Source: JBFJWU01 sp041623475 [NCBI: bacterium] (GTDB lineage Bacteria; J088). Taken from it: DNA of 6,076 nucleotides. Position 1 is the first letter of the stretch. Each line of letters opens with the position of its first letter. The notes under the pieces are model-generated. The model was not told where the DNA came from and searched no databases. It worked only from the letters and a program-made list of their open reading frames with translations. The DNA lies in contig JBFJWU010000214.1 of the NCBI GenBank assembly GCA_041623475.1, forward strand, positions 1-6,076, written 5' to 3'. Positions 1 to 6,016 of the stretch are shown in pieces. The position numbers and the translations under genes are program-made.

Positions 1-3
1 GGC

Positions 4-441
4 CTACTCAAATGCGGTCAGGACGCGACGTCGGATCTCAGTCGCCTGTTCCAGTGATTTCAGACCAGGGGCATTGCGCTCCCAATGTTCGTTGCCAAAA
101 TATCCCTGGCGCGTCCCACAGGCCAGGATCAGGTAATCAAACGGCACATCACCGAAGCTACAAATCAGTTTCGAGCCGGTCAGGTCGACCCGTGTGACTT
201 CGCCTTGCAGGACCTCAGTATTGCGAAATTCCGATAACATTCCGCGAATGGGCGCAGCGATCTCGGCCGGACTGAGTCCAGCCATTGCAACCTGATAAAG
301 CAAAGGCTGAAACAGATGATGATTGCGGCGATCGATCAGCATGACGGATACGGACGGGCACCGTCCGAGGATCCTGGCCGCGTTGATGCCAGCAAAGCCG
401 CCGCCGACAATGACGACCTGTTTGCGTTCTTTTGTTTCCAT
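4..441 (-). CDS. NDH-2 type NADH dehydrogenase (FAD), N-terminal part, ended by an in-frame TAG; probable pseudogene
   Basis: Type II NADH dehydrogenases are single-subunit, non-proton-pumping flavoproteins on the cytoplasmic face of the inner membrane that pass electrons from NADH to quinone. The Rossmann FAD motif GGGFAG is at residues 13-18, the end-of-strand acid is D37, and the very characteristic block HHLFQPLLYQVAMAGLSP spans 41-58. YLILACGT (103-110) is the second flavin-contact motif, and YFGNEHW (114-120) plus APGLKSLEQATEIRRRV (124-140) are also typical of the family. The reading frame stops at TAG (6-4) after residue 145, whereas family members have roughly 400-450 residues, so the NADH-binding and quinone/membrane parts are missing. 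The next codon, GCC (Ala), fits the usual continuation 'AFE-x-AE', so the stop appears to replace a sense codon such as CAG. The ATG at 441 is 7 nt after the upstream PilZ-like gene, suggesting co-transcription. The family call is firm; whether the gene is dead, read through or mis-sequenced is open. Confidence 0.85.
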   Translation of the reverse strand: METKERKQVVIVGGGFAGINAARILGRCPSVSVMLIDRRNHHLFQPLLYQVAMAGLSPAEIAAPIRGMLSEFRNTEVLQGEVTRVDLTGSKLICSFGDVPFDYLILACGTRQGYFGNEHWERNAPGLKSLEQATEIRRRVLTAFE

Positions 442-1898: not shown

Positions 1899-2780
1899 GT
1901 GGCAAAGACTGGAATCGCGATAAGTGTGGCGTTATTGTTGGTGTCCGTACCGGTAGCCGCCCAGCAGTTAAATCAGGTGCATGTTCGTGGACCTGTATAC
2001 ATGCTGCAGGGTAAGGGCGGAAATATCGGCGTGTTTGCGGGGCGCGACGGTTTTACGCTGATCGATGATCAGTACGCCCCGGCCAATCCTCAAATTATTG
2101 CGGCTTTGAACAAGATCAAACGACAACCGGTTCGCTGGGTTATCAATACACATTGGCACGGCGACCACACTGGTGGCAACGAACAATTGGCACTTGGTGG
2201 CGCGATGATCGTCGCACATCGAAATGCTCGGCAGCGATTGTCGACCGACCAGACAATGGAGTTTTTTTCCAGGACTGTCCCGGCATCCCCCGATGCAGCA
2301 CTGCCGGTATTGACGTTTACGTCGGACATCCGTTTTCACCTGGACAACGAAACTGTCGATGTTGTCCACGTCGCCAATGCCCACACAGACGGCGACAGCC
2401 TGGTTTTTTTTGCACGTGCCAACGTGATCCACATGGGCGATACGTTTTTTAACGGCAGTTTTCCGTTCGTCGACGAAAGCTCTGGCGGTTCGATATCGGG
2501 AATGATCGATGCCGTTGACCGGGCCCTGAGTCTGGCGGACGAGCAAACACTGGTGATCCCCGGTCACGGGAGCCTGGCATCCCGGGTTGAGTTGCAGAAT
2601 TATCGAGACATGCTTGCGACGGTGCGGTCCCGGGTTCATGACTTGAAGAACCAGGGTAAGTCGTTGCACGAGATTGTCAGCCAGGATCCGACAAAAGGCT
2701 ATGAGTCCTTTGGCGATGGATTTATCAAATCGGATGACTTTGTCCGGTTTGTGTTCAATGGCGTGGGGACGACATTGTGA
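1899..2780 (+). CDS. Secreted metallo-beta-lactamase-fold hydrolase
   Basis: A 293-residue binuclear-zinc-type hydrolase of the MBL superfamily, predicted periplasmic. Residues 1-21 form a Sec signal (K3, hydrophobic ISVALLLVSVPVAA, likely cut before QQ at 22-23). The metal ligands are all visible: HWHGDH (H85, H87, D89, H90), H162 (NAHTDGD), bridging D181 (HMGDTFF) and H223 (PGHG). The bridging position is Asp, as in glyoxalase-II-like and other hydrolytic MBL proteins, rather than the Cys of class B1 beta-lactamases, so a beta-lactamase call is not justified. The GFTLIDDQY strand and the IDAVDRAL helix also match exported MBL hydrolases. GTG at 1899 has GGAGGG 6 nt upstream. The gene is divergent from the receiver gene and overlaps the next gene by GTGA at its stop codon. 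The substrate is unknown; an ester, lactone or thioester is plausible. Confidence 0.87.
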   Translation: MAKTGIAISVALLLVSVPVAAQQLNQVHVRGPVYMLQGKGGNIGVFAGRDGFTLIDDQYAPANPQIIAALNKIKRQPVRWVINTHWHGDHTGGNEQLALGGAMIVAHRNARQRLSTDQTMEFFSRTVPASPDAALPVLTFTSDIRFHLDNETVDVVHVANAHTDGDSLVFFARANVIHMGDTFFNGSFPFVDESSGGSISGMIDAVDRALSLADEQTLVIPGHGSLASRVELQNYRDMLATVRSRVHDLKNQGKSLHEIVSQDPTKGYESFGDGFIKSDDFVRFVFNGVGTTL

Positions 2781-3190
2781 TCGCTGCGGACGATGTCGCG
2801 GCAGCGGAACACGCCTACTCAATTATCGAAACCGGACAGGTATTGGTCGTTCGTCATCCTCGCCTGGGTGATCGGGCCCTGGGCCGTACAATTGTCTGCG
2901 AAATGTTCGAACTGCTGGACCGTTTGACCGAATCAGGCGGCCGTGCTGCCTGCTACCACGACTCATTGAATATCGAAACCGTCGACTACGGTTACACGGT
3001 CGAATTTGCCAAACTGGGAAACCGATATGGAGACCGCGTCATGCACGTTGCCGCCGTTGACAAGCCGTGGCTGCGAGTCCTTGGACGCGCCGGGGCGATC
3101 CTGGGCGGCGTCGACACGAAGTTCGCGCCGACCGAAGAAGCGGCACTCAAGGTCCTGGCCTCTGCCGGATTCGATTTGGAACTGTCGTGA
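2777..3190 (+). CDS. Small SpoIIAA/STAS-like protein (tentative)
   Basis: A 137-residue soluble protein without signal peptide or membrane segments. Its strand-helix pattern suits the SpoIIAA-like (STAS/SEC14-like) fold: strands around YSIIETGQVLVVRH (14-27), a helix CEMFELLDRL (41-50), strand RAACYHDSLN (56-65), a helix to NRYG, strand DRVMHVAAVD (86-95), then WLRVLGRAGAIL (98-109) and TKFAPTEEAALKVL (114-127). The last two elements most resemble the family. Such proteins are thought to bind lipids or act as anti-sigma-factor antagonist-like partners, but no function can be assigned here. GTG at 2777 overlaps the TGA of the hydrolase gene (GTGA), with GGGGA about 7 nt upstream, which implies translational coupling. 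A plain hypothetical protein is the fallback call. Confidence 0.6.
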   Translation: MIAADDVAAAEHAYSIIETGQVLVVRHPRLGDRALGRTIVCEMFELLDRLTESGGRAACYHDSLNIETVDYGYTVEFAKLGNRYGDRVMHVAAVDKPWLRVLGRAGAILGGVDTKFAPTEEAALKVLASAGFDLELS

Positions 3191-4942: not shown

Positions 4943-6016
4943 CTATTTGAACAGGCCGCTGCCAAAATCCGCGGCGACGTCCACGCACCAGACACTGACG
5001 CCGTTCAGGTCGTCCAGGGATTGCTGGTCGGTCAGGACAAAATACAGGGTTTCGCCGTCATATCCACCGTTACGAATCAGGTCGGGGCCGATGGGAAAGC
5101 CTGCAGAGTAATCGCCACCGATGCCGCCATATAGGCGCACATCGATTCCCGCACCGTCGTAGTAAAAGTTGTCCATTCTTATGGTGCAATCGTTCAGAAT
5201 GGTTGCCGTACCGGCGACACCGTGAAAAAACGTTTCCAATTCCGCAGTCTGGCCGACGATCGGATGGGTCTTGGCGCAGTCACCCGGCGTATCCAATCCC
5301 GCGATTCCGGTTGAAATCGGCTGGGTGCCCTCGGCAGTCGACAGGTATGCAATGATGTCAGCCAACTCCTGGTCCGAGAGTCGGTCAACGGACCAGAACG
5401 GCATTCGTCCACCGGTCAGGCCGTCATAAACCGGACTGGATTCCAGACCACTTGTCCGTACCCGTCGCGCAATATAGTCTGCGCCTCCCTGTGCTGCCAG
5501 CAAGTCGCCCCGCAGTCCGGGAGCCAGATTGGTTCCTGATGCATCGATGCCGTGGCACGCAGCGCACGTTGCGTTGAATATGCTGCGTCCGGTTTCCGAA
5601 TTTCCGGAAAGTTGCGGAGGCTCCGTCAACCCAAGTTGAAAAGTGACCGGTTCCGTGTGGTCAGGCGGCAGTGATTGAAGCCATCCGTACAAGTCGATCC
5701 AGTCTGTATCGTCGCTGGTCCAAAGGCGGGTGTTCATCCATTCGCTGCGGCAGCTGTTAACCGCTTCCAGCAGCGAAGCGACGTTTCCGTTCTTGTATGT
5801 CGGACGATCCGTGCTGCCGGCCAGCGGGTGACCGGCCCGGCGGAATGGATCGCTGGATGGTTCTGATATCGCGTGGCAGGTCGAGCACGCGAACGTGTTT
5901 CCGTTTGGGTCCGGGTTGTCATAGACTGCCCGCCCCCGATCATTGGTCTGGCCACACGATACGAGAATCGCGAAAGACAGGGCCCCAAGGGCCGACATCC
6001 CGTTCGTCCAACGCAC
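4943..6016 (-). CDS. Dihaem c-type cytochrome lipoprotein with C-terminal DM13 domain
   Basis: A 357-residue exported redox protein. The signal LGALSFAILVSC ends in a good lipobox (LVSC) with C21; Gly at +2 favours the outer membrane. Two haem c attachment sites are seen: CSTCH (44-48) and CAACH (151-155). M205 (GGRMPFW) before a C-terminal helix is the likely sixth ligand of the second haem; M94 is the candidate for the first. Residues about 262-357, from FFHGVAGTATILNDC to VSVWCVDVAADFGSG, match the DM13 domain, which is thought on comparative grounds to take part in electron transfer; C277 and C344 are its cysteines. GTG at 6016 is the first start after an in-frame TAG and has AGGT 5 nt upstream; ATG at 5998 is less likely because it would drop the only Arg of the signal. 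The gene converges on the esterase with a 20-bp gap. Donor and acceptor are unknown. Confidence 0.88.
   Translation of the reverse strand: MRWTNGMSALGALSFAILVSCGQTNDRGRAVYDNPDPNGNTFACSTCHAISEPSSDPFRRAGHPLAGSTDRPTYKNGNVASLLEAVNSCRSEWMNTRLWTSDDTDWIDLYGWLQSLPPDHTEPVTFQLGLTEPPQLSGNSETGRSIFNATCAACHGIDASGTNLAPGLRGDLLAAQGGADYIARRVRTSGLESSPVYDGLTGGRMPFWSVDRLSDQELADIIAYLSTAEGTQPISTGIAGLDTPGDCAKTHPIVGQTAELETFFHGVAGTATILNDCTIRMDNFYYDGAGIDVRLYGGIGGDYSAGFPIGPDLIRNGGYDGETLYFVLTDQQSLDDLNGVSVWCVDVAADFGSGLFK

What the first reader, a model, noticed from the sequence alone, without database searches (positions are those of the whole stretch)
1..30. NDH-2 gene cut by an in-frame amber codon at an otherwise conserved position
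The frame reads ...RRRVLTAFE, then TAG, then GCC. In NDH-2 proteins as I know them this stretch continues 'AFE-x-AE', so the frame after the stop still looks like the family and one base change (for example CAG to TAG) explains the break. Everything upstream is intact. This could be a recent pseudogene, natural suppression or readthrough, or an error close to the sequence end.
Basis: partly seen in the sequence, partly recalled or inferred. Interest (0 to 1): 0.6.

Follow-up and report, generated by a model that had tools for sequence, protein, structure and literature searches.

The report
NDH-2 gene fragment with terminal stop
The sequence ends inside an ordinary bacterial respiratory gene, and a stop codon lies just three bases before that end, most likely a sequence-end error or a plain broken gene rather than anything unusual in how the cell reads its code.

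Summary
The minus strand at 441-7 encodes the first 145 residues of a type II NADH dehydrogenase (NDH-2). The next codon (6-4) is TAG, and only three more bases (GCC) exist before the sequence ends.

First, the TAG does not replace a conserved residue: it sits at the variable x of AFE-x-A-E, with 15 different residues in 133 relatives and no stop. Second, that the frame after the stop "still looks like the family" rests on one Ala codon, about a 6-8% chance match. Third, TAG recoding is unlikely: another gene of the window ends with TAG where two relatives stop.

The 145 residues show no decay: 38 of 38 nearly invariant columns are kept. So the break is either an error or bad join in the last bases of the sequence, or a very recent nonsense mutation; I lean to the former. 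Interrupted copies occur among relatives: 3 of 127, by missing stretch or frameshift. No genome or reads of the source were available, and no relative above 71% identity was found, so the choice stays open. Ordinary; low interest.

The parts
7..441 (-). 5' third (145 codons, ATG start) of an NDH-2 type NADH:quinone oxidoreductase gene
   Evidence: Pfam Pyr_redox_2 E 4.3e-15 over profile 1-138/291; PDB 9mqy E 2.7e-34; 80 loci kept at 45-71% identity; 38 of 38 conserved columns kept
4..6 (-). in-frame TAG at the variable x of AFE-x-A-E
   Evidence: sequence; 0 of 133 relatives have a stop there
1..3 (-). last codon before the end of the sequence, GCC (Ala)
   Evidence: sequence; Ala in 121 of 122 relatives at this column
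4943..6016 (-). cytochrome c / DM13 protein gene that ends with TAG (4945-4943); internal control for TAG as a stop
   Evidence: Pfam Cytochrom_C and DM13; its C-terminus and stop line up with those of L081 and L084

Best explanation
The window starts inside an ordinary NDH-2 gene, because the sequence ends there. The TAG three bases from that end is most likely an artefact of the sequence end: a base error or a bad join in the last few bases of a draft contig. The organism then carries an intact, standard NDH-2 gene that continues outside the window. Shown: the intact frame, the place of the stop, its distance to the end, and TAG as a normal terminator of another gene in the window. Inferred: that the window is a whole draft contig, and that its last bases are in error.
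For: The stop lies 4-6 bases from the sequence end. No sign of decay in the other 145 codons: 38 of 38 columns with at least 95% conservation are kept, and G+C by codon position (0.63, 0.43, 0.60) is close to that of the six other genes, at their low end for third positions. 0 of 133 relatives have a stop at this column, and in 30 of 133 the codon is a single base away from TAG (29 of 122). Only one residue after it can be compared, so the bases after the E codon may not even be NDH-2 sequence.
Against: The Ala codon after the stop fits the family (Ala in 121 of 122), which argues against a random join, though not against a base error. No read, coverage or second assembly could be examined. 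That the window is a complete contig is shown by no call; 'no whole genome is held' merely fits it. Nothing in the sequence is positive evidence of an error. The preference over a real nonsense codon rests on error rates recalled, not measured here.
Confidence: 0.55

Rival explanations
1. A real, recent nonsense mutation: the gene is a young pseudogene making a 145-residue fragment that lacks the rest of the protein and so is inactive. Other ways for electrons to enter the respiratory chain would cover the loss (inferred).
For: The upstream frame is intact with no visible decay, as for a very young break; the Ala codon after the stop fits the family. Interrupted NDH-2 genes exist among relatives: 3 of 127 (L033 with an internal stretch missing, L141 and L052 with a shift of frame).
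Against: None of those 3 looks broken by a nonsense codon. A stop that falls within the last six bases of a sequence is more likely to come from the end itself (inference). There is no second disabling change.
Confidence: 0.36
2. TAG is read through or reassigned (suppressor tRNA, TAG-to-Gln code, or programmed readthrough), so that a full NDH-2 is made.
For: One in-frame TAG in an otherwise intact gene; Gln is common at this column (15 of 133). TAG-to-Gln recoding is reported for crAss-like phages (PMC9523058; start of abstract seen in the listing).
Against: The cytochrome gene of this window ends with TAG where L081 and L084 stop; no internal stop in the six other frames taken as genes (weak test); no tRNA in the window; 5 of 7 window proteins match bacterial enzyme, regulator or cytochrome families in Pfam, 2 match none (no phage library was run); 0 of 133 relatives have a stop here.
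Confidence: 0.04
3. The NDH-2 homology really ends at the E codon: a rearrangement, insertion or fusion begins there and the TAG is simply its first codon.
For: Only six bases follow; one matching Ala codon has a 6-8% chance probability. L033 shows that internal loss of an NDH-2 stretch occurs. Two 10-base words of the end recur, at 2813 and 5029, against about 0.3 expected for all words tried (my estimate), slightly more than chance.
Against: The Ala codon fits the family (121 of 122). No exact repeat over 10 bases starts in window 1-25, and no repeat of 16 or more bases involves the end.
Confidence: 0.05

Closest known systems
Type II NADH:quinone oxidoreductase (NDH-2), as in PDB 9mqy
   Same: N-terminal FAD-binding part, residues 4-145 aligned to 9-153 at E 2.7e-34
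   Different: Only 145 residues are in the window, then TAG and the sequence end; relatives have a median of 285 further codons (127 of 133)
Ordinary bacterial pseudogene or gene cut by a contig end (recalled kinds)
   Same: Intact frame cut by a single in-frame stop with no other change seen
   Different: The stop is so near the sequence end that the downstream part cannot be examined
TAG-to-Gln recoded (code 15) crAss-like phages (PMC9523058, listing only)
   Same: In-frame TAG at a column where Gln is common
   Different: TAG is the terminator of another gene of the same window; no window protein was found to be a phage family in Pfam, and no phage library was run

Membership tests
NDH-2 | N-terminal FAD-binding Rossmann part of Pyr_redox_2 | tested here: met
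   PF07992 E 4.3e-15, profile 1-138/291
NDH-2 | closest solved structure is an NADH:quinone reductase | tested here: met
   9mqy_A E 2.7e-34, next best 1.9e-10. The NCBIfam scan gave no NDH-2 model, only sub-cut-off matches to other flavoproteins, best SQR_III_seleno at 33.9 bits against a cut-off of 525
NDH-2 | NADH-binding part and C-terminal membrane-binding part (recalled) | not testable with these tools
   would lie outside the window; no genome held
Recoded TAG (TAG read as an amino acid) | TAG not used as a terminator in genes of the genome | tested here: not met
   the cytochrome c/DM13 gene ends with TAG at the C-terminus shared with L081 and L084; one gene only
Recoded TAG (TAG read as an amino acid) | several conserved genes with in-frame TAG | tested here: inconclusive
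   0 internal stops in the six other frames taken as genes, but these were chosen as open frames and only 6 kb is available
Recoded TAG (TAG read as an amino acid) | a TAG-reading tRNA in the genome | not testable with these tools
   0 tRNAs in the window; genome not held
Pseudogene | disabling change supported by reads or by a second disabling change | not testable with these tools
   no reads; only six bases follow the last sense codon before the stop

The most novel reading that the evidence does not exclude
A bacterium that uses TAG as an ordinary stop elsewhere reads this one TAG as an amino acid, or uses it to make a short FAD-binding fragment alongside full-length NDH-2, as a control of electron entry into respiration.
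Probability: 0.02. Interest if true: 0.65.

Novelty: already known. Interest (0 to 1): 0.08.

Why it matters
It matters little. It is a caution that a stop codon in the last bases of a sequence says little about the biology of the gene, and that a 'conserved position' must be checked against relatives. If readthrough were real it would be a new case of stop-codon use in a respiratory gene, but the evidence leans against it.

Tried and rejected
TAG recoding: set aside after the TAG of the cytochrome gene was found to line up with the stops of two relatives.

Search for the same organism or a close relative, to read the codon there: none found. Exact 27-base pattern across the end, with the first base of the TAG left open, in viral contigs: 0. 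Whole window against plasmids, megablast: no match. NDH-2 protein against plasmids: 354 records match; best of the 10 listed 58.2%, the tally puts one record at 60-80%. NDH-2 protein in further whole genomes: matches in 24 of 90 (E<=1e-20), 28 of 369 (E<=1e-25), 5 of 19, 14 of 196 and 21 of 58 (E<=1e-40); these sets overlap. All 95 match rows listed in these five calls show no stop in the aligned part, and none is above 69%.

Placing the organism through its other genes: cytochrome c/DM13 protein in the genomes of 20 of the 80 loci: 4 of 20 match, best 45% over residues 31-357; in the order of that best genome 8 of 43 match, next best 35% over 37-356, with partial copies up to 43%; in another class 71 of 185 match, all weakly, best E 1.1e-7. 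Esterase in the genomes of 48 of the 80 loci: 26 of 48 match, best 36-39% over most of its length, shorter pieces up to 45%. In the 149 loci held the frames next to the NDH-2 gene (452-1213 and 1360-1770), the metallo-beta-lactamase-fold protein and the 137-residue protein had no listed match at E<=1e-4. None of this names a lineage, so taxonomy is left open.

End repeat as a cause of a bad join: words of 10-12 bases starting at window 1-25 were sought on both strands. Two 10-base matches (to 2813 and 5029) and nothing longer; with all these words tried I estimate about 0.3 matches by chance, so two is slightly more, but too little to build on. Searches give expectations of 0.00 and 0.02 for each single word, which do not correct for having picked the word. 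One search lists no repeat of 16 or more bases at the end.

Paper searches: one search listed 12 of 29 papers on stop codon reassignment (listing and abstract starts seen only, no paper opened); two searches found no paper with all their terms. No claim about absence from print is made.

Rows dropped before counts: one search printed 80 loci, two of which (L040, L063) do not reach residue 145 and are misread in its tally, so that tally is not used; 5 of 127 dropped (2 short, 3 duplicates); 8 of 141 dropped (2 short, 6 duplicates), and 6 of 133 have no stop before the end of the held DNA. The relatives were found by likeness to this protein, so conservation is judged within that set.

Full report
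What is there. On the minus strand an ATG frame runs from 441 to 7 and encodes 145 residues ending RRRVLTAFE; TAG follows at 6-4 and GCC at 3-1, and the sequence ends. The product is the N-terminal third of a type II NADH dehydrogenase: it matches positions 1-138 of the 291-position Pyr_redox_2 model at E 4.3e-15, and the best solved structure is an NADH:ubiquinone reductase of 494 residues, 9mqy, at E 2.7e-34, far ahead of the next at 1.9e-10. NCBIfam gave only matches far below its cut-offs.

The column of the stop. I read the codon after the E in relatives. In one search, 122 of 127 loci could be counted (2 too short, 3 duplicates): no stop; R 44, E 18, L 16, Q 13, A 11, K 7 and others; the next residue is Ala in 121 of 122 and the one after is Glu in 111 of 122. 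In one search, with more loci, 133 of 141 were counted (dropped: 2 short, 6 duplicates): 15 different residues and no stop. So the TAG is at the variable x of AFE-x-A-E, not at a conserved position. In 30 of 133 the codon is one base away from TAG. The only ground for saying that the frame continues as the family does is one Ala codon, which chance gives at 4 in 64, or about 8% at this G+C (my arithmetic).

Is the gene decayed? No sign of it. All 38 columns conserved in at least 95% of the relatives are kept; among the relatives 100 of 133 have no mismatch there, 27 have one, 5 two and 1 three. G+C by codon position (0.63, 0.43, 0.60) is close to that of the other six genes (first 0.59-0.69, second 0.41-0.51, third 0.61-0.69). 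The gene was under selection until the present or very nearly so (inference).

Is TAG a stop in this organism? Yes, as far as one gene can tell. The cytochrome c/DM13 gene (6016-4943, minus) ends GLFK-TAG; its relatives L081 and L084 end GLFQ-stop and GGFN-stop in the same place. The six other frames taken as genes have no internal stop, a weak test since they were chosen as open frames. There is no tRNA in the window. So recoding is unlikely; a suppressor tRNA elsewhere cannot be excluded because the genome is not held.

How often is this gene broken? In the 127 of 133 relatives whose stop lies in the held DNA, the median is 285 codons after the E. Three stop clearly early (under 260 codons): L033 at 88 codons (an internal stretch is missing, with the last part in the same frame), L141 at 89 and L052 at 215 (the later part lies in another frame) (six best alignments printed for each). 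None of the three looks like a nonsense codon. Broken copies thus occur at the percent level, from real decay or from assembly, and one more is no surprise.

Choice between error and pseudogene. With rates recalled, not measured here, an error in the last bases of a draft contig and a young nonsense mutation are within about an order of magnitude of each other, and the nearness to the end favours the error. I put 0.55 on an end artefact, 0.36 on a real nonsense codon, 0.05 on a true end of homology and 0.04 on readthrough or recoding. No closer relative was found in viral contigs (exact pattern only), plasmids or further whole genomes, so no sister sequence can settle it.

Verdict.

Noticed in passing
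449-1177, minus: Open frame of 242 codons with GTG start and no Pfam or NCBIfam match, between a response-regulator frame (1905-1357, minus; domain in 1770-1360, Response_reg E 1.3e-13) and the NDH-2 gene, all on one strand. No histidine kinase was matched among the seven proteins scanned.
   Followed up: partly
1899-2780, plus: Metallo-beta-lactamase fold protein (Pfam Lactamase_B E 8.6e-17); best NCBIfam model is the SoxH-related quinoprotein relay metallohydrolase 2 (E 5.9e-25, 88.2 bits, well under its cut-off of 280), so a relative of unknown substrate; the true beta-lactamase models also match only under their cut-offs among the 25 listed.
   Followed up: no
2777-3190, plus: 137-codon frame with no family match, its GTG start overlapping the stop of the metallo-beta-lactamase-fold gene by four bases.
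   Followed up: no
4943-6016, minus: Protein with a cytochrome c domain followed by a DM13 domain; the nearest relative found is 45% identical (L081).
   Followed up: partly
L033, L141, L052: Three relatives have interrupted NDH-2 genes: one with an internal stretch missing in frame, two with a shift of frame.
   Followed up: partly
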